This document shows positions 35,365 to 47,926 of a DNA stretch of 64,000 nucleotides, in pieces. The stretch covers positions 1 to 64,000 of the forward strand of contig BQML01000022.1 of assembly GCA_022180565.1 (NCBI GenBank), given 5' to 3'. Each line of letters begins with the position of its first letter. Position 1 is the first letter of the stretch. The position numbers and the translations under genes are program-made. Source of the stretch: Bacteroidia bacterium (GTDB taxonomy: Bacteria > Bacteroidota > Ignavibacteria > UBA10030). The notes under the pieces are model-generated. The model was given only the letters and a program-made list of their open reading frames with translations. It was not told the DNA's origin and ran no database searches.

Positions 35365-36876
35365 ATGACCCGTCCCACAACGATCGCCGGTTTGCGTGCG
35401 AGCGGCTACACCGTCCTTCCCGTCAAGGAGGAGGTGCGCAGAAATCTCATCGGCAAGCTCGAGCGTAAGGAACAGTTGTTCAAAGGCATCATCGGCTATG
35501 AGAAGACCGTCATTCCCGCGCTTGTCAACGCCATTCTTGCCCGCCACGATATTCTTCTCCTGGGACTTCGCGGACAGGCAAAGTCACGCATCGTGCGACT
35601 GTTGCCAACGCTTCTCGATGAGTATGTTCCGATTGTTCGGGGATGTGAGATCAACGACAATCCCTACCGTCCCGTGTGCAAGCGTTGTACCGACCTTGTG
35701 CGCCAGCACGGCGACGAGGTAGAGATTGAATGGATTCACCGGGACGCAAGGTTTGCAGAGAAACTTGCGACTCCCGACGTGACCATTGCCGATCTCATCG
35801 GTGACATCGATCCGATCAAGGCGGCGACGCAAAGACTGCACTACTCGCATGAGGGCGCCATCCATTTCGGCATTATCCCCCGTACAAATCGCGGGATCTT
35901 TGCCATCAACGAACTTCCCGACCTCCAGCCCCGCATTCAGGTCGGACTGTTCAACATCATGGAAGAAAAAGACATTCAGATCCGCGGGTTCAACATCCGG
36001 ATACCGCTCGATGTCATGATCGTGTTCACGGCCAATCCGGAAGATTACACCAACCGTGGGAATCTGATTACACCCCTGAAGGACCGCATCGATTCGCAAA
36101 TCCTCACCCATTATCCCCGCACTCTTGAGGATGCGATCGCCATCACAGCCCAGGAGGCATGGATCCACCGAAACGGGCGTCGGATCGTCATTCCGCACTA
36201 CTTCCGCGAGATCGTCGAATGCATTGCGTTCGAGGCCCGGAAGAGCGAATTCGTCGACCAGAAATCCGGCGTCAGCGCGCGGTTAACGATCTCGGCCATG
36301 GAGAACCTCGTGAGCAACGCGGAAAGGAGAGCCATTCTCCTGAAGGACGATGCGATTGTGCCGCGTATCTGCGATCTCGCTCATGTGCTTCCGGGTCTCA
36401 CCGGGAAGATCGAACTGGTGTTTGAGGGAGAGCAGGAAGGCTCCGTGAAGGTGAGCAAGGCCTTGATTGGAAAGGCGGTACGCGAGGTGTTTCGGAAGTA
36501 TTTTCCGGACCCCCTCGAACGGAGACAAAAGGGTCCCGGTGGTGAACAGCGGCCGCTCCCGCAGGACTCCGAGTATGCGGCCATTATCCAATGGTTTGAA
36601 TCCGGCAACCGCGTCGAAGTCTCGGACGACAGTCCACTTGAAGAATATTTCCGCGAACTCAACCGGGTGAAGGGACTGAAGGACCTCACGCAAAGACACC
36701 TGAACATTCCTGAAGCGAGCCGCGCCGAGCTGGCCTCGGCCATGGAGTTTGTCCTCGATGGCCTCCACCAATCGTCGCGCATTGCCAAAGAAGAAGTCGA
36801 CCGGACGACCGCTTACAAGGATTTGGTCCAGAGCATCTTTGCGGGGCGCGGACGGACTCTCGACGAAGAAAGTTAG
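35365..36876 (+). CDS. MoxR/Mg-chelatase-like AAA+ ATPase
   Basis: 503 residues. Walker A is GLRGQAKS (67-74). An insertion after it carries Cys94 and a C-x2-C pair (Cys105, Cys108), possibly a zinc site. The Walker B position reads GIFAINELPDL, so Asn182 stands where Asp is usual, with catalytic Glu183 intact. Sensor 1 is VFTANPEDYTNRG, and PLKDRIDSQI holds the arginine-finger region. The C-terminal 120 residues are helical and charged. Such ATPases act as chaperones with a VWA partner; the next gene encodes one. Target unknown. Confidence 0.9.
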   Translation: MTRPTTIAGLRASGYTVLPVKEEVRRNLIGKLERKEQLFKGIIGYEKTVIPALVNAILARHDILLLGLRGQAKSRIVRLLPTLLDEYVPIVRGCEINDNPYRPVCKRCTDLVRQHGDEVEIEWIHRDARFAEKLATPDVTIADLIGDIDPIKAATQRLHYSHEGAIHFGIIPRTNRGIFAINELPDLQPRIQVGLFNIMEEKDIQIRGFNIRIPLDVMIVFTANPEDYTNRGNLITPLKDRIDSQILTHYPRTLEDAIAITAQEAWIHRNGRRIVIPHYFREIVECIAFEARKSEFVDQKSGVSARLTISAMENLVSNAERRAILLKDDAIVPRICDLAHVLPGLTGKIELVFEGEQEGSVKVSKALIGKAVREVFRKYFPDPLERRQKGPGGEQRPLPQDSEYAAIIQWFESGNRVEVSDDSPLEEYFRELNRVKGLKDLTQRHLNIPEASRAELASAMEFVLDGLHQSSRIAKEEVDRTTAYKDLVQSIFAGRGRTLDEES

Positions 36877-36888
36877 GTGCCCCCGACG

Positions 36889-37989
36889 ATGAGAATCCGC
36901 TATACGCGATGGACTGCAGATTCCATGACCGATGAGCAGAGGCTGGAATCGCTGATGTCGTTCTTCAGCTATCTCCTCATTCAGTCGAATGGCGACGTTG
37001 AGGAGGCCATGGAGTGGCTGAGGCAATTGGCCGAGGAGTACGGACTCTTCGACGAATCGTTGACGATGGACGAGCTCATCCAAAAGCTCAAGGAGCGCGG
37101 AATCCTGGAAGAAGTCAAGGACATGCTGGTGCTGACGACGCGCGGAATTCAGAAGATCCGCCAAGATGCCTTGCGCCAGATCTTCACATCGCTCAAAAAG
37201 GCTCCCGACGGCTCGCACGAAACCCCGTTGAGCGGAAGCGGAACCGACCGTTTGAGCGAGACGCGTTCGTGGACGTTCGGCGACCATGCGACGAACATCG
37301 ATCTCACTTCCACCATCACCAATGCGCTGAAGAGGGACGGGATTGACCACTTCGCGCTCCAGGAAGACGACCTGGAGGTCTACGAGACCGAACATATGAC
37401 CTCGTGCGCCACGGTTCTCATGCTGGATATCAGCCACAGCATGATCCTGTACGGCGAGGACCGGATCACTCCCGCCAAGCAGGTGGCACTGGCACTGGCG
37501 GAGCTGATCCGCACGAAGTTCCCCCGGGATTTCCTGGCGCTCGTGGTGTTTGGGGACGACGCCAAGATTGTAAGCCTGGACGAGCTACCGTTCCTGAGTG
37601 TGGGGCCGTATCACACCAACACCCGGGCCGGCCTTCAGTTGGCGAGGAACCTGTTGAGGCGCAGTGGGAAGGTCAACAAGCAGATCTTCATGGTGACGGA
37701 CGGCAAGCCTTCGGCCATTTTCGATTCGGCCGGCAGGCTTTACAAGAACTCCTTTGGCCTTGATCCGCGCATTGTCAACAAGACGCTCGACGAGGCCGTG
37801 CAGTGCCGAAGGGAGAAGATTACCGTAAGCACCTTCATGGTAGCACAGGACCCTTCTCTCGTGAATTTTGTCGAAGAATTCACCAAGGCCAACCAAGGCC
37901 GCGCTTACTTCTCCTCGATCAACAACCTCGGCGAGTTCATCTTTGTCGACTACATCCGGAACCGCAGGAAGCGGATCGGATCCCGCTAA
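36889..37989 (+). CDS. VWA-domain partner of the AAA+ ATPase
   Basis: 366 residues from the ATG at 36889; GTG at 36877, directly after the ATPase stop, is a possible alternative. Residues 1-150 are helical and probably contact the ATPase. The VWA domain begins at CATVLMLDISHSM with MIDAS residues Asp180, Ser182 and Ser184, Thr in HTNTRAGLQ and Asp in MVTDGKPSA, so metal-dependent ligand binding looks intact. It ends RKRIGSR. No membrane segment or signal is present. ATPase and VWA genes form a two-gene unit. Confidence 0.9.
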   Translation: MRIRYTRWTADSMTDEQRLESLMSFFSYLLIQSNGDVEEAMEWLRQLAEEYGLFDESLTMDELIQKLKERGILEEVKDMLVLTTRGIQKIRQDALRQIFTSLKKAPDGSHETPLSGSGTDRLSETRSWTFGDHATNIDLTSTITNALKRDGIDHFALQEDDLEVYETEHMTSCATVLMLDISHSMILYGEDRITPAKQVALALAELIRTKFPRDFLALVVFGDDAKIVSLDELPFLSVGPYHTNTRAGLQLARNLLRRSGKVNKQIFMVTDGKPSAIFDSAGRLYKNSFGLDPRIVNKTLDEAVQCRREKITVSTFMVAQDPSLVNFVEEFTKANQGRAYFSSINNLGEFIFVDYIRNRRKRIGSR

Positions 37990-41391: not shown

Positions 41392-42156
41392 ATGCTGCTG
41401 ATCTTCCCCTCCATCGAGATATCCCATGGTGAATGCGTCCATGTCGTCCACGGAGAACCCGGCTTCGAGCACGTGTACTCGGTCGATCCTGTCCGCATGG
41501 CTGTGCTCTGGAGGGGAGAGAACGCCAAGACCCTCCATATCATTGATCGGGACGGTGTTGAGGAGGGAATGATCAGGAACCGCGAAATGATCAAAAAGAT
41601 CGTGGAGGCTGTGGACATCCCCGTCCAAGTCGGTGGGGGGATCAGGAATCTTGAGGAAATACGTACCCTCCTGGACATGGGTGTGTATCGAGTGATCGTC
41701 GGTACGGCGGCAGCAGAGACCCCCGAGCTGGTTCAGGATGTGATTCGCGAACACGGCTCCCGCAAGATGGCCATCAGCATAGAGTCGTACCAAGGTAAGG
41801 TGCGGGTAAGCAGGGGCAGGAAACTGCTTCCGGTATCCCCGATCGAGTTTGGCAGGCAGATGAAGGACCTGGGCGTTTCCCGAGCGCTTTTTTCGTCCAT
41901 TGACGATGACGGAAAAACCAAGAGGCTCGATTTGACGGCTCTGAAGGAAATGGCCACTTCCACCGGGCTCCGCATCACTGCCCAGGGCGGAGTCAGAAAC
42001 TACAAAGATCTGATAGACCTGCAGACCCTTGAGCAATTTGGAGTGGATTCGGCGGTGATCGGACGACCGCTGTACGAAAACACCTTCCCCTGCCAGAGAT
42101 TGTGGCGGCTGAATGAAAAAGATCTGAAGGACCTCGGACCAACACGGCGCATCTGA
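41392..42156 (+). CDS. HisA-like TIM-barrel protein with Glu at both catalytic positions
   Basis: 254 residues, a complete phosphate-binding barrel: PVQVGGGIRNLEEIRTLLDM, YRVIVGTAAAETPELV, AQGGVRNYKDL and SAVIGRPLYEN are HisA-like. The two catalytic Asp of HisA (Asp8 and Asp127 in the Thermotoga enzyme) align with Glu9 (PSIEISHG) and Glu131 (AISIESYQG). HisA isomerises a histidine-pathway intermediate; here the changed acids and the position ahead of pfkB-lysC-dap genes, away from other his genes, suggest a different substrate or a regulatory role. It ends 2 nt before the PfkB gene. Confidence 0.8.
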   Translation: MLLIFPSIEISHGECVHVVHGEPGFEHVYSVDPVRMAVLWRGENAKTLHIIDRDGVEEGMIRNREMIKKIVEAVDIPVQVGGGIRNLEEIRTLLDMGVYRVIVGTAAAETPELVQDVIREHGSRKMAISIESYQGKVRVSRGRKLLPVSPIEFGRQMKDLGVSRALFSSIDDDGKTKRLDLTALKEMATSTGLRITAQGGVRNYKDLIDLQTLEQFGVDSAVIGRPLYENTFPCQRLWRLNEKDLKDLGPTRRI

Positions 42157-42158
42157 TC

Positions 42159-43085
42159 GTGACCGTCACCGTCATCGGCCATCTTTGTCTCGACACGCTT
42201 CATCTTCCGAACCAGGCTGAGCCGGTCCGTGATTTCGGCGGTATTGTTTATTCCATCGCCACGCTCGCCGCCATGATGGACCGGGAAGCGAGGATTCTTC
42301 CGGTCGTCGGAGTGGGGGAGGCCGAGTACGACCGGTTTCTGGATTGGCTGAAGCAGTTTCCGAACGTGGACGCCGCCGGGGTGTACCGGTTCAAGGGCCC
42401 GACCAATGACGTGCATCTCTTTTACGGGGAGGGTGGCTCGCGGATCGAGTGCTCGAAGGACATTGCCCGGCCGATCCCCATCGAGCATATCAGGCCGTTT
42501 CTGGAGGCGGATGGAATTCACATCAACATGATTTCCGGATTCGACATCACGCTTGAGACGCTTGACGCCATCCGTATGGAGACCCGGGACCGAGGAACGC
42601 CGCTGACGTTTGATACGCATTCCCTGAGCCTTGGGATCGATCACGAATTCAAGAGGTTCCGTCGACCGCTCTCCGACTGGCGGCGTTGGTACTTCATGCT
42701 CGACACCGTACAGCTCAGTGAGGACGAAGCCGCCGGGCTCACGCCCGAACGTTATACGGAACAGGACTTTGTCCATCAGGCCCTCTCGCTCATGGTGAAG
42801 AATATCATCATCACCCGGGGCGCCCGCGGTGCGACGCTGTTCGAACAACGCAACAAGAAGATCACTCGACACGACCTTCCGGGGCACAAGCTGACGGATT
42901 CGCCGGACCCCACGGGGTGCGGCGATGTCTTCGGCGCGGCTTTTTTTGCGGAGTATCTCAGAACGCACTCGGCTCTTCGAGCGGCCGGGATTGCCAACAA
43001 AGTCGCCGCCTGGCATACAACCTATTCGGGAACGGCCGGCCTGCAGAGGGCGCGAGAATCCGTTCAGAATGAGTTTCCTGCATAG
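42159..43085 (+). CDS. PfkB-family carbohydrate/nucleoside kinase
   Basis: 308 residues, GTG start 2 nt after the HisA-like gene. The N-terminal TVIGHLCLDTLHLP and a DFGGIVYSIATLAA segment bind the sugar; IITRGARGATLFE and the C-terminal signature DPTGCGDVFGAAFFAEYL (Asp256 as base) form the ATP site. Substrate not predictable. Because it is coupled to the HisA-like gene, it may act on the same phosphorylated sugar or nucleoside. It is followed by lysC 6 nt later. Confidence 0.9.
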   Translation: MTVTVIGHLCLDTLHLPNQAEPVRDFGGIVYSIATLAAMMDREARILPVVGVGEAEYDRFLDWLKQFPNVDAAGVYRFKGPTNDVHLFYGEGGSRIECSKDIARPIPIEHIRPFLEADGIHINMISGFDITLETLDAIRMETRDRGTPLTFDTHSLSLGIDHEFKRFRRPLSDWRRWYFMLDTVQLSEDEAAGLTPERYTEQDFVHQALSLMVKNIIITRGARGATLFEQRNKKITRHDLPGHKLTDSPDPTGCGDVFGAAFFAEYLRTHSALRAAGIANKVAAWHTTYSGTAGLQRARESVQNEFPA

Positions 43086-43091
43086 ACGTTC

Positions 43092-44495
43092 ATGATCGTT
43101 CAAAAATTCGGAGGAACCTCGGTAGAAGACGCGGCAGCGATGAATGCCGCGATCCGCATCATTGAACGCGAGCGATCCCGCACGCCGCTTGTGGTCCTCT
43201 CCGCCATCGGCGGAGCCACAAACACCCTGCTGGGCGCCGCCCGTGTGGCGCAGAACGGTAGATTCGACGAAGCAACGCGGGTTCTGAATGATTTGCTGGA
43301 GCGGCACGTTCTGATTTTGGAAAACCTGCTGGATTCCAGGTCGCGGATCCAGCGAATCCTGCTTGACATCCGACGTCGCTTCGAAGAACTCAAACACCTG
43401 TGCCAGGGCATCGCCCTGCTCGGAGAGCTGACGGACCGCTCTCTGGACACGGTGGCATCCTATGGCGAACGACTTTCGACCGCTATCATGGCTGAGACCA
43501 TGGACGAGCGAGGACTGCCGGCGGTCTTGATCGATGCCAGAACGTTTATGATCACCGACGACAGGTTTACCGCAGCTCGCCCTTTGTTTGACGAACTTGA
43601 CGCACGGCTCAAAGAATCCGTCGCCCCGTACGTCTCCGCCGGGAAGATCGTCGTCACCCAGGGTTTCATCGGTTCCACACGCAAAGGCGTCACGACCACC
43701 CTGGGGCGCGGCGGGTCGGATTATTCGGCTTCCATCATCGGAGCGGCGCTCAATGCGGAAGAGATCCAGATCTGGACCGACGTGGACGGGGTGCTTACGG
43801 CCGATCCGCGGATCTGTCCTGATGCACGCCAACTCGGGGTTATCTCCTTCCGCGAGGCATCGGAGCTGGCTTACTTCGGGGCTCGCGTGCTTCATCCAAG
43901 TACGATTCTGCCCGCCGTCCGGAAGAACATTCCCGTCCGCGTGCTGAATTCGCGGCGGCCCGATCGTCCGGGCACCTTGATCACAGCCAACCCGCCAAAG
44001 TCCAATGTGGCGGTGAAATCGATTGCCTCGAAGAAGGGGATCACGGTCATCAATATTCAATCCACCCGCATGCTGATGGCGTACGGGTTTCTCGAAAAGA
44101 TCTTCTCCGTCTTCAACCGTTACCAAACGCCCGTAGACCTTGTCACGACGTCGGAAGTAGCCGTCTCGGTCACGATCGACAACAAGGACCGTCTGGAAGA
44201 AATCGCGGCGGACCTCGCGGAAGTCGGCGAAGTTGCCGTCTATGACCGCAAAGGAATCGTGTGCATTGTCGGGGAACAAATGCACGCCACGGCAGGCGTT
44301 GCCGACCGGGTATTCCGGGCGCTTGGCGACATCAACGTCGTCATGATTTCGCAAGGGGCTTCCGAAGTAAACATGAGCCTCGTGCTGAACGAGGAGGACA
44401 TTGTGGAAGCTGTGAGGCGTCTCCACTATGAATTCTTCCCAACTCCCACAGCCGGACGGGTGGCCGAGACGGCAAGCCATGAGGTGACGTCATGA
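43092..44495 (+). CDS. lysC: Aspartate kinase
   Basis: 467 residues. The start MIVQKFGGTSVEDAAAMNA and the later VVTQGFIGSTRKGVTTTLGR and GGSDYSASIIGAALNAEEIQ are aspartokinase signatures. Two ACT domains follow (GITVINIQSTRMLMAYGF and VAVYDRKGIVCIVGEQ), so feedback control by lysine or threonine is likely. It catalyses the first step to lysine, threonine and methionine. It overlaps dapB by 4 nt (ATGA). Confidence 0.97.
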   Translation: MIVQKFGGTSVEDAAAMNAAIRIIERERSRTPLVVLSAIGGATNTLLGAARVAQNGRFDEATRVLNDLLERHVLILENLLDSRSRIQRILLDIRRRFEELKHLCQGIALLGELTDRSLDTVASYGERLSTAIMAETMDERGLPAVLIDARTFMITDDRFTAARPLFDELDARLKESVAPYVSAGKIVVTQGFIGSTRKGVTTTLGRGGSDYSASIIGAALNAEEIQIWTDVDGVLTADPRICPDARQLGVISFREASELAYFGARVLHPSTILPAVRKNIPVRVLNSRRPDRPGTLITANPPKSNVAVKSIASKKGITVINIQSTRMLMAYGFLEKIFSVFNRYQTPVDLVTTSEVAVSVTIDNKDRLEEIAADLAEVGEVAVYDRKGIVCIVGEQMHATAGVADRVFRALGDINVVMISQGASEVNMSLVLNEEDIVEAVRRLHYEFFPTPTAGRVAETASHEVTS

Positions 44496-45226
44496 ACATA
44501 GCACTCATCGGGTACGGGAAGATGGGAAAGGAAGTGGAAGCGGTCGCGGGTGAGCGCGGATGGACAGTCGCGTTGCGCCGGACCTCGCGTTCCTCGCCCC
44601 CATCCGAGGCGGACATGCGATCCATTGACGTTGTCATTCATTTTGCCCGCGCGGATTCCCTCCGACAGCATGTGGAGGAATGGAGCAAAGCAGGCAAGCC
44701 GATGGTGGTCGGAACCACGGGATGGGGATCCGATCTCGACGCCATGAAGAGGATCATCGACACCAACGGCACGGGTCTTGTGTACGGATCGAACTTTTCA
44801 CTCGGCATGCAGATCTTTCAGCGCATGGTGCGACGAGCGGGGGCGTTGATCGACCGGTTCCCCGAATACGATGCCGGCATCCGCGAAACGCACCATCGTC
44901 ACAAGGCAGACAGCCCGAGCGGGACGGCGTTGATGCTGGGAACCATGCTCCTCGAGAAGCTTTCCAGAAAATCCGAACTGGTTCACGGGACCTTGCGGGG
45001 ACCCGTCAAACCGGAACAGCTCCCAATCGCTTCCCTGCGGATGGGAACAGAAGTGGGCGAGCATGCGGTTCTCTTTGACTCTCCCGCCGACACGATCGAG
45101 CTTGTGCACAAGGCGAAAAACCGTCGCGGCTTTGCCTTGGGCGCACTCCTTGCGGCGGAATGGATCCGCGGAAGAACCGGTATTCACACGTTTGATGAGG
45201 TCGTCTCGGACCTGCTTGACCCCTAG
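44492..45226 (+). CDS. dapB: 4-hydroxy-tetrahydrodipicolinate reductase
   Basis: 244 residues. N-terminal dinucleotide motif IALIGYGKMGKEVE; catalytic motif ETHHRHKADSPSGTA with His134, His135 and Lys138. It reduces the DapA product with NAD(P)H in the lysine/diaminopimelate pathway. It is coupled to lysC and 34 nt before dapA, which has its own GAGGAG upstream. Confidence 0.96.
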   Translation: MNIALIGYGKMGKEVEAVAGERGWTVALRRTSRSSPPSEADMRSIDVVIHFARADSLRQHVEEWSKAGKPMVVGTTGWGSDLDAMKRIIDTNGTGLVYGSNFSLGMQIFQRMVRRAGALIDRFPEYDAGIRETHHRHKADSPSGTALMLGTMLLEKLSRKSELVHGTLRGPVKPEQLPIASLRMGTEVGEHAVLFDSPADTIELVHKAKNRRGFALGALLAAEWIRGRTGIHTFDEVVSDLLDP

Positions 45227-45260: not shown

Positions 45261-46166
45261 ATGGCACAGCGAACAGCGTTCAAGAAGCGATTTCAAGGGA
45301 CAGGCACCGCCCTGGTGACCCCTTTTAAGAAGAGCGGGGCGATTGACGAACATTCGCTTCTGCAATTGCTCGACTATCAATTGAAGGGAAAGGTCGAGGC
45401 TCTCGTGCCGCTGGGGACAACAGGAGAAAACCCGACGCTCTCGCGGACGGAGATGCGAAAAATCATCGAAGTGGTAGTGGAACATGTGGCGGGACGTGCG
45501 CTGGTGATTGCCGGCGCCGGGAGCAACAGCACAGCGACCGCGCTCGAACTCGCCCGAGAGGCGCAGGCGGCGGGAGCTGATGCGGTACTTGTGGTCGGGC
45601 CGTATTATAACAAGCCCACGCAGGAGGGATACTACCGGCACTTCAGGACTATTGCCGAAGAGATTGAGATACCGATCATCGTTTACAATGTTCCGGGCAG
45701 GACGGGGGGAAACATCGAGGCGGCAACGGTGCTTCGGATGGCCGAGGAGATTCCGTTGATCCGCGGGGTCAAGGAAGCTTCGGGAAACATGGCGCAGATC
45801 ATGGAGATCGCGCGGAACAAGCCTGCGCATTTTTCCCTGCTTTCCGGCGACGATGCCCTCACCGTTCCCATTATGGCGTTGGGCGGCGATGGATGCATTT
45901 CGGTGGTTGCAAACGAGGCACCGAACCTGTTCTCGTCTCTGGTGAGGGCCTGCCTTTCAGGCAAATGGGAGAAGGCCCGCGATCTCCACAACCGTCTGCT
46001 CCCGCTCATGAACGCGAATTTCCTTGAGTCAAATCCTATTCCTGTCAAGTCAGCTCTGGCAATGATGGGATTGATTGAAGAGGTGTACAGGCTCCCGCTT
46101 GTGGAACTGAGTGCGCGTCACCGGGAGCCGCTGAGGAAAATCCTCAAATCCCTCGAATTACTCTGA
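45261..46166 (+). CDS. dapA: 4-hydroxy-tetrahydrodipicolinate synthase
   Basis: 301 residues. FQGTGTALVTPF opens the aldolase barrel, PLGTTGENPTLS binds pyruvate, Tyr142 lies in IVYNVPGRTGGN and Schiff-base Lys171 in RGVKEASGN. It condenses pyruvate with aspartate semialdehyde. No asd gene is present in the window. The gene is 9 nt before dapD. Confidence 0.97.
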   Translation: MAQRTAFKKRFQGTGTALVTPFKKSGAIDEHSLLQLLDYQLKGKVEALVPLGTTGENPTLSRTEMRKIIEVVVEHVAGRALVIAGAGSNSTATALELAREAQAAGADAVLVVGPYYNKPTQEGYYRHFRTIAEEIEIPIIVYNVPGRTGGNIEAATVLRMAEEIPLIRGVKEASGNMAQIMEIARNKPAHFSLLSGDDALTVPIMALGGDGCISVVANEAPNLFSSLVRACLSGKWEKARDLHNRLLPLMNANFLESNPIPVKSALAMMGLIEEVYRLPLVELSARHREPLRKILKSLELL

Positions 46167-46175
46167 AAGAACACG

Positions 46176-47018
46176 GTGCCCCTCAAGGACCATATCGAGG
46201 CCTTCTACGAACAGGATCCCAAACAGCTTGATCGCGCTGGGGCGCTCCGCGCATTTCACGAACTGAAATTCTTCCTGAACGGCGGTGAGATCCGTGCGGC
46301 TTTTCGATCCCCCGACTCCCCCACCGGGTGGCAAGTCAACGATTGGGTCAAGAAGGGTATTCTGCTCGGATTTCGTCTCGGAGAACTCGTGGAACTTCGC
46401 CTCTCCGAGCATTTCCAGTACTTCGACAAGAGCACCTATCCTCTCAAGAAGCTCACGCCGGACCACCGGGTCCGTCTCGTTCCGGGAGGATCGAGCATTC
46501 GCGATGGGGCGTTTGTCGGCAAAGGGGTCGTGATCATGCCCCCCGCCTACATTAATACGGGTGCATTCGTCGACGAAGGGACGATGATCGACTCCCACGC
46601 TCTCGTTGGTTCCTGCGCGCAGATCGGCAAGCGTGTTCATCTCAGTGCCGGCGCACAGATTGGAGGCGTGCTCGAACCCGTCGGCGCCCTTCCCGTCATC
46701 ATCGAAGACGATGTGCTGGTCGGTGGTAACTCCGGTGTGTACGAAGGGACAATCGTTAAGCGACGTGCGGTCTTGGGGGCCGGGGTGATCCTCACGGGCT
46801 CCACCCCGTTGTACGACCTCGTGAATGGAACTGTACTGCGACGAGCCGACGGTCACCCGCTGGTGGTTCCCGAAGGCGCCGTGGTCGTTCCCGGGTCGCG
46901 CGCTGTGGACAATCCCTTTGCCAGAAAACATGGGCTGTCCCTCTACGCTCCGGTGATCGTGAAGTATCGCGACGAAAGCACCGATGCCTCCACAGCGCTC
47001 GAAGAGAGCCTCCGATGA
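46176..47018 (+). CDS. dapD: Tetrahydrodipicolinate N-succinyltransferase
   Basis: 280 residues, GTG start at 46176. The C-terminal two thirds form a left-handed beta-helix of hexapeptide repeats ([59 protein letters not shown]). The N-terminal helical domain and the [11 protein letters not shown] segment identify DapD and point to the succinylase branch of lysine synthesis; DapC and DapE must be elsewhere. It overlaps the next gene by ATGA. Confidence 0.94.
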
Positions 47019-47926
47019 GGCGTTTTCTCCTCTGCGGAAGCAACGGCCTCCTGGGTCAGCGCCTCGCGCTGATGCTCGGGGGAGAGACCGAATATGAGGT
47101 CCTGAACACCTCGCACCACCGCTCGTTCGTGTTCGATCACCATCTCTTCGATTACACCCAGCTTGACCTGACAAGAGCGTCGGACGTCAAAAGCCTCGTG
47201 TCGAGTTTCCAGCCCGACGTGATCATTAACGCGGCGGGCGCCACGAACGTGGACTGGTGTGAAGATCATCGGGAGGAGGCCTGGGCCATCAACGTTACGG
47301 GCGTTGAGCACCTGGTCGAAGCGTCTCGAAAAGTAGGCGCAACCCTCATTCACGTTTCCACAGACTATATCTTCGACGGCAAGACGGGGAATTACCGCGA
47401 AGATGACAGGCCGAATCCCCAGAACTATTACGGAAAGACCAAGCTTGCCGGTGAGAACGCAATCAGAATCGCCGGAATCGATTATGCCATTGTGAGAACC
47501 GTCGTCTTGTACGGCACGGGATACCGCGTCAAACGCAACTTTGCCCTCTGGGTACTTGACAATCTGAAGAGCGGCATGAGCATACGGTGCGTGGACGATC
47601 AGATCAGCTGTCCGACCTATGTCACCGATCTCGCGCTCGGCATTCTGAAGATCGCCGAACTTGAAAAGACCGGGATCTTTCACATCACGGGAAGCGAGGC
47701 CGTCAGCCGGTACGAGTTTGCAGTCCGCATCGCCAGGGCGTTCAATCTCGATGCGGGACTCATCCACCGCGTCAAGACTTCGGATCTCCCTCAGCGGGCT
47801 GTGCGACCGATGAACACAACCATGATTACCGTGAAAGCACAGACGGAACTGGGCTTGAAAACGTCCAACATCGAGCAAGGCCTTGCACTGTTGAAACAGG
47901 AACTTCAATCGGCAGGAAAGAACTGA
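47015..47926 (+). CDS. RmlD-like dTDP-4-dehydrorhamnose reductase family protein
   Basis: 303 residues. The N-terminal [15 protein letters not shown] binds NAD(P)[14 protein letters not shown] and [13 protein letters not shown] give the Tyr-x3-Lys short-chain dehydrogenase site, and [11 protein letters not shown]-type sequence matches the RmlD substrate domain. It reduces a nucleotide-linked keto-sugar or, as in related MAT2B-type proteins, plays a different role. It is translationally coupled to dapD but has no obvious role in lysine synthesis; no other rml genes are near. Confidence 0.85.

What the first reader, a model, noticed from the sequence alone, without database searches (positions are those of the whole stretch)
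41392..43085. HisA paralogue with double Asp-to-Glu change, coupled to a PfkB kinase ahead of lysine genes
Both general acid/base Asp of HisA align with Glu (9 and 131), a matched change suggesting an adapted active site rather than decay. It is separated by 2 nt from a PfkB kinase and leads lysC-dapBAD, not a his operon. The pair may form an undescribed step on a phosphoribosyl-type substrate, or a regulatory module.
Basis: partly seen in the sequence, partly recalled or inferred. Interest (0 to 1): 0.6.

Follow-up and report, generated by a model that had tools for sequence, protein, structure and literature searches.

The report
HisA kept without its histidine pathway
A gene descended from the histidine enzyme HisA is kept under strong selection in a bacterium that has lost the rest of the pathway; its catalytic end has decayed across relatives while another surface stayed unchanged, which suggests the protein has a second, undescribed job.

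Summary
In detail: the window encodes a HisA-family protein (HisAx) with Glu at both catalytic Asp positions, 2 nt before a PfkB kinase, ahead of lysC-dapB-dapA-dapD. HisAx is the only HisA in this genome, but hisF, hisG, hisB and hisH are absent too, so it is not a histidine enzyme. Orthologues occur in 59 of 61 genomes of the order searched. In family f5 they are real HisA (Asp/Asp) in a hisA-hisF-hisI-(purE)-pfkB-rmlD-serS cluster. Where that pathway was lost or replaced, Asp9 became Glu (Arg in one family) and position 131 varies freely. So Glu/Glu is one stage of active-site decay, not a conserved catalytic pair. PfkB adjacency is a relic of the old operon; PfkB's conserved neighbour elsewhere is an RmlD-like gene. 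The gene is under strong purifying selection (dN/dS 0.04-0.08). A C-terminal motif ENxF[PS]CQxxW and residues away from the active site are invariant in 78 sequences, even where the phosphate site is gone. I infer a second, probably non-catalytic docking function; partner unknown. Closest parallel: PriA retained after pathway loss.

The parts
41392..42156 (+). hisAx: HisA-family (beta-alpha)8 barrel protein, 254 aa, catalytic face altered
   Evidence: Pfam PF00977 1.8e-58; AF2 pLDDT 91, best PDB matches PriA/HisA Z 28-29, rmsd about 2 A
41416..41418 (+). codon of Glu9 (Asp in working HisA; Glu or Asp in nearly all homologues, Arg in family f2)
41782..41784 (+). codon of Glu131 (Asp in working HisA; freely variable among orthologues)
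42070..42117 (+). C-terminal motif LYENTFPCQRLWRLNE (residues 227-242), invariant core N..F.CQ..W, absent from canonical and transferred HisA
42159..43085 (+). PfkB/ribokinase-family kinase, 308 aa, GTG start, catalytic GxGD (Asp256) kept; functional pairing with hisAx not supported
43092..44495 (+). lysC, aspartate kinase (lysine-sensitive type)
44492..45226 (+). dapB
45261..46166 (+). dapA, by position and similarity to syntenic loci
46176..47018 (+). dapD
47015..47926 (+). RmlD-like reductase, the neighbour of PfkB that is conserved outside the order

Best explanation
HisAx is the vertically inherited HisA of this lineage. It once sat in a hisA-hisF-hisI-purE-pfkB-rmlD-serS cluster. The histidine pathway was then lost (as in this genome) or replaced by a transferred his operon (as in many sister genomes). 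That freed HisA from ProFAR isomerisation, and catalytic-face residues decayed differently in different branches; Glu9/Glu131 is the state at the base of the window's family. The gene was kept because this HisA type also has a second function. Shown by sequence: retention, low dN/dS, loss of catalytic residues, and an invariant set elsewhere (R41, N44, P77, R164, D219 and the C-terminal N230-F232-C234-Q235-W238). Inferred: these residues, at the N-terminal ends of strands and along the C-terminal helix in the predicted fold, form a docking surface, so HisAx works as a non-catalytic partner or scaffold for an unidentified protein or complex. Phosphate-site motifs persist in the window's family, so a phosphorylated ligand may still bind and tune it. 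PfkB is a separate, probably active kinase.
For: (1) G000 lacks hisF, hisG, hisB, hisH. (2) Orthologues in 59 of 61 order-level genomes searched, hisB in only 37 of them. Among 58 tabulated loci, Asp/Asp in 5 of 5 with the native his operon, 0 of 23 without hisB, 1 of 30 with another hisB. (3) The window's clade branches beside Asp/Asp HisA of family f5, which sit in his operons. (4) dN/dS 0.043, 0.084, 0.039, 0.057 for four pairs; the 0.039 pair has Ile at 131. (5) At least 5 active-to-degenerate changes on a 73-row tree. (6) Ten positions invariant in 78 degenerate or orphan sequences and not conserved in canonical HisA; of residues invariant in working HisA of this type, 30 of 37 catalytic-face ones fall below 90% but only 7 of 16 bottom/C-helix ones (Fisher p=0.010). 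(7) Seven sequences of families f8/f9/f11 have Arg131 and no GGG phosphate motif yet keep FPCQxxW; L241 (V9/N131), in a genome with other HisA/HisF genes, does too. (8) trpF and trpC are present in G000, so it does not replace TrpF.
Against: No partner is identified and no neighbour is constant across lineages. Invariant residues could be structural for this HisA type. Position 9 stays acidic in nearly all lineages, which a purely non-catalytic role does not explain. In family f7 Asp9/Asp131 remain with fixed W142R and D173N, which looks like an altered enzyme rather than decay. The face assignment rests on the secondary structure of one AF2 model, not coordinates, was made after seeing the data, and treats sites as independent.
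Confidence: 0.55

Rival explanations
1. HisAx is still an enzyme: Glu9 (and neighbouring residues) acts on a different phosphorylated aldose, so the active site was re-tuned to a new isomerase reaction.
For: Glu9 invariant in 30 of 30 family members and common in f3/f4/f6; phosphate motifs kept in the window's family; position 9 changed state at least 6 times on the tree, mostly to Glu; f7 keeps D/D with fixed W142R and D173N.
Against: Residue 131, the second acid/base, is not conserved (E, D, I, V, F, Y, S, K, N); family f2 has Arg9/Ser131; f8/f9/f11 lost the GGG phosphate motif; all keep the C-terminal motif.
Confidence: 0.25
2. HisAx and PfkB form a two-step module (kinase then isomerase) in an undescribed pathway.
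For: Immediate adjacency, 2 nt apart; pair conserved over much of the order; PfkB keeps its catalytic Asp256.
Against: PurE or hisF-hisI lie between them in several families; PfkB occurs with an RmlD-like gene and no adjacent HisAx in other families; HisAx lies beside crp-uspA, ruvA-nuo or proC genes elsewhere; G053 has HisAx but no PfkB match.
Confidence: 0.07
3. HisAx supplies TrpF (phosphoribosylanthranilate isomerase) activity, as PriA and SubTrpF do in Actinomycetota.
For: PriA is the closest solved structure and is known to be retained after pathway loss (PMC5404923).
Against: trpF and trpC are both present and adjacent in G000 (C10:26499-27871); the orphan genomes tested that lack trpF also lack trpC, so the pathway is absent; catalytic residues are lost.
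Confidence: 0.03
4. A dying relic: HisAx is on its way out and persists by chance or for transcriptional or translational reasons at the head of the operon.
For: Catalytic residues decay in many directions; the gene sits first in a cluster with lysine genes.
Against: dN/dS 0.04-0.08 even in the pair with Ile131; fixed invariant residues in 78 sequences; retained in lineages with entirely different neighbours; no internal stops in the order-level hits.
Confidence: 0.1

Closest known systems
HisA, ProFAR isomerase (EC 5.3.1.16)
   Same: Fold, length, two phosphate-binding motifs, direct descent from a working HisA of the same lineage
   Different: Asp9 and Asp131 both Glu, ligand-loop Trp142 lost, scores under the TIGR00007 cut-off, no histidine pathway in the genome
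PriA and its derivatives SubHisA, SubTrpF (Actinomycetota; PMC5404923, PMC13055916)
   Same: HisA-family enzyme kept after loss of his and/or trp genes; active-site changes follow
   Different: There one catalytic activity (HisA or TrpF) remains and explains retention; here neither pathway need explains it and both acid/base positions are abandoned in many lineages
Chlorobi-Rhodothermota HisA with extra C-terminal peptide (Del Duca et al. 2021, PMC8305728)
   Same: That report notes the C-terminal addition and infers that I. album and M. roseus took their hisA by transfer
   Different: In the sections read it does not describe a second, retained native HisA, nor the motif's persistence in proteins with lost catalytic residues
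PfkB/ribokinase superfamily kinases (TM0415 inositol kinase, ribokinase)
   Same: Window PfkB model aligns with Z 28-32; GxGD Asp kept
   Different: 15-22% identity; unusual conserved D.HsLTLG and WRRW motifs; substrate unknown

Membership tests
HisA (ProFAR isomerase) | Catalytic Asp at strand 1 and strand 5 (positions 9 and 131) | tested here: not met
   Glu/Glu in window; variable in orthologues
HisA (ProFAR isomerase) | Curated equivalog score (TIGR00007 cut-off 229 bits) | tested here: not met
   195.4 bits
HisA (ProFAR isomerase) | HisA-type barrel with both phosphate motifs | tested here: met
   GGG 81-83, GT 104-105, GG 199-200, IGR 223-225 present; model Z 28-29 to PriA/HisA
HisA (ProFAR isomerase) | Rest of histidine pathway in the genome | tested here: not met
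   hisF, hisG, hisB, hisH not found; hisD, hisC, hisI, hisE not searched
HisA (ProFAR isomerase) | ProFAR isomerase activity | not testable with these tools
   needs assay or complementation
PriA / SubTrpF | Genome with trp pathway but no trpF | tested here: not met
   trpF and trpC present in G000
PfkB kinase (for 42159-43085) | C-terminal GxGD catalytic motif | tested here: met
   TGCGDVFGAAF, Asp256; GxGD in the 54 aligned orthologues and invariant in A4
PfkB kinase (for 42159-43085) | Ribokinase-like fold | tested here: met
   AF2 pLDDT 89, Z 28-32 to ribokinase-family structures

The most novel reading that the evidence does not exclude
HisA of the Chlorobi-Rhodothermota-Ignavibacteria lineages is a moonlighting protein: besides isomerising ProFAR it carries, on its C-terminal FPCQxxW helix and the barrel face away from the active site, the docking surface of an unknown conserved complex, and that role, not histidine synthesis, keeps the gene in lineages that have lost or replaced the pathway.
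Probability: 0.5. Interest if true: 0.75.

Novelty: new variant of a known kind. Interest (0 to 1): 0.58.

Why it matters
If true, a textbook enzyme has a hidden second role in several bacterial lineages, exposed by natural experiments in which the enzyme role was lost or replaced. It gives specific residues to mutate, would correct the annotation of this family as 'HisA' in histidine auxotrophs (pathway predictions from hisA alone are wrong here), and adds a case, next to PriA, of an enzyme retained after pathway loss, this time apparently without keeping a known catalytic activity.

Tried and rejected
TrpF replacement: rejected, trpF and trpC present. HisH as docking partner of the conserved face: rejected, hisH absent in G000 and in almost all orphan genomes, controls positive. 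HisAx-PfkB pathway: weakened by synteny. A 200-aa gene upstream of HisAx in family f9 was suspected to be hisH but is RuvA by its sequence. An eIF2B-like gene sits near HisAx in family f7 only; not followed. A PDB profile search with the HisAx alignment listed only HisA, PriA, HisF and HisF-derived designs, so no solved complex points to a partner. Literature searches found no report of orphan or degenerate HisA in Ignavibacteria. A Foldseek viral search was submitted but not collected, as it could not change the conclusion. The early idea that Glu9 alone defines a new enzyme was dropped once f2 (Arg9) and f7/f9 (Asp9) were seen.

Full report
Observation. The window encodes at 41392-42156 a 254-residue HisA-family protein, here HisAx, followed after 2 nt by a PfkB-family kinase (42159-43085, GTG start), then lysC, dapB, dapA, dapD and an RmlD-like gene. 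Residues 9 and 131 are Glu where solved HisA and PriA chains have Asp. HisAx scores 195 bits against TIGR00007, under the curated 229-bit cut-off. The AF2 model is confident (pLDDT 91) and matches PriA and HisA at Z 28-29 with rmsd about 2 A. So the description is correct.

The genome. G000 is 3.0 Mb, listed as 100% complete, in 111 contigs. No other HisA or HisF was found (the other PF00977 hits score at most 32 bits), and hisG, hisB and hisH are absent while controls and relatives were detected. HisAx therefore cannot serve histidine synthesis here. trpF and trpC are present and adjacent, so it does not replace TrpF as PriA does in Actinomycetota. Organism names were obtained for close relatives only: Ignavibacteriales MAGs. 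'f1' and so on are the tool's anonymous family codes.

Conservation in the order. All 61 genomes searched had some match; an orthologue at 35% identity or more is in all but G016 and G022, drafts listed as 90% and 55% complete. It lies in a syntenic block: AAA/vWA genes upstream in several families, then hisAx, sometimes purE, then pfkB, dap genes, rmlD, serS. In family f5 the orthologue is Asp9/Asp131 and is followed by hisF, hisI, sometimes purE, then pfkB-rmlD-serS; the exception is G053, a 1.7-Mb genome with Glu/Lys and no hisB. On the trees the window's family branches with the Asp/Asp proteins of f5. The simplest reading is that HisAx is the native HisA, and its closeness to pfkB is what remains of the his cluster. 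Outside the order PfkB relatives sit next to an RmlD-like gene with no adjacent HisAx, so the kinase's partner is more likely that gene. The kinase keeps the GxGD motif throughout and folds like ribokinases and an inositol kinase.

Glu/Glu is not the rule. In the window's family Glu9 is invariant (30 of 30) while position 131 is E 18, I 6, D 3, V 2, F 1. Families f3/f4/f6 are mostly Glu9/Asp131 with Tyr and Asn variants; f2 is Arg9/Ser131. Tabulated against the pathway, Asp/Asp occurs in 5 of 5 loci with the native his operon, 0 of 23 in genomes without hisB, and 1 of 30 in genomes with another hisB. Many sister genomes carry a separate, transferred-looking hisA-hisF pair at about 30% identity. 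Even that second HisA has gone to Glu9 in G006 and G019, which lack hisB. The Trp of the ligand loop (position 142) is also lost in the window's family. In that family both Glu probably arose on the stem branch and Glu131 was later lost in part of it.

Still selected. Pairwise dN/dS is 0.04 to 0.08 where dS could be estimated, including 0.039 for a pair with Ile131. Pairs with saturated dS were not used.

Beyond the order. A sample of 118 genomes of the phylum, not chosen by the motif, and the DNA around the hits show that working HisA of several lineages, including ones whose near relatives are named Chlorobiaceae and Rhodothermota, carries a C-terminal motif, LYENxF[PS]CQxxW or close to it, that other Bacteroidota HisA and transferred HisA lack. 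Del Duca et al. (PMC8305728) already reported an extra C-terminal peptide in Chlorobi-Rhodothermota HisA and inferred transfer of hisA into Ignavibacterium album and Melioribacter roseus; in the sections read they do not mention a retained native copy. Here such copies are common. Family f7 has one beside a complete transferred set (Asp/Asp, but W142R and D173N). Families f8/f9/f11 have this protein, usually as the only match, with Arg131 and no GGG phosphate motif; two of these genomes are single contigs. L241 has Val9/Asn131 in a genome with other HisA/HisF genes. All keep the motif. At least five active-to-degenerate changes are needed on a 73-row tree built without the scored columns; L241 has a very long branch and its place is unsure. 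Loci were found with the motif as search pattern and are biased for it; those were not.

What stays and what goes. Across 78 degenerate or orphan sequences, R41, N44, P77, R164, D219, N230, F232, C234, Q235 and W238 are invariant; none is conserved in canonical HisA. In contrast D9, R17, D131, W142, T168, D173 and S198, invariant in working HisA, are lost or mixed. With faces assigned from the model's secondary structure, 30 of 37 catalytic-face residues invariant in working HisA drop below 90%, against 7 of 16 on the opposite face and the C-terminal helix (p=0.010; top against bottom face alone p=0.07; descriptive, since faces were assigned after the fact and sites are not independent). Neighbouring genes differ between lineages.

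Interpretation. Shown: pathway loss, retention, purifying selection, active-site decay in different ways, an invariant set elsewhere. Inferred: a second function on that surface, most likely docking to another protein, with or without a bound phosphate ligand. The main rival is a re-tuned isomerase using Glu9, favoured by the persistent acidic residue 9 and by family f7, and disfavoured by the free variation at 131, by Arg9 in f2 and by loss of the phosphate site in f8/f9/f11.

Noticed in passing
L254:4087-4740 (G000:C14:68086-68739): A second, stand-alone TrpF-like gene (217 aa) besides the trpC-trpF pair on C10; second PF00697 matches also appear in G004, G006 and G011.
   Followed up: partly
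window 42159-43085 and 47015-47926: PfkB kinase and RmlD-like reductase are neighbours in many other Bacteroidota genomes, separated in the window by lysC-dapBAD; a likely two-gene module of unknown substrate, with unusual conserved WRRW and HsLTLG motifs in the kinase.
   Followed up: partly
L248:8681-9400 (G006) and the matching gene in L249 (G019): A second, transferred-type HisA also carries Glu at position 9 in two genomes that lack hisB, an independent Asp-to-Glu change after pathway loss.
   Followed up: partly
L219-L238 (family f7 loci): HisAx is followed by a CRP-like regulator, a UspA-like protein and often an eIF2B-like gene; W142R and D173N are fixed there, possibly an altered enzyme.
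   Followed up: no
L222, L229, L235, L236, L237: Degenerate HisAx lies near ruvA and nuo-like genes in family f9.
   Followed up: no
window 35365-37989: An AAA (Mg-chelatase-like) and vWA gene pair keeps its place upstream of hisAx in several families of the order.
   Followed up: no
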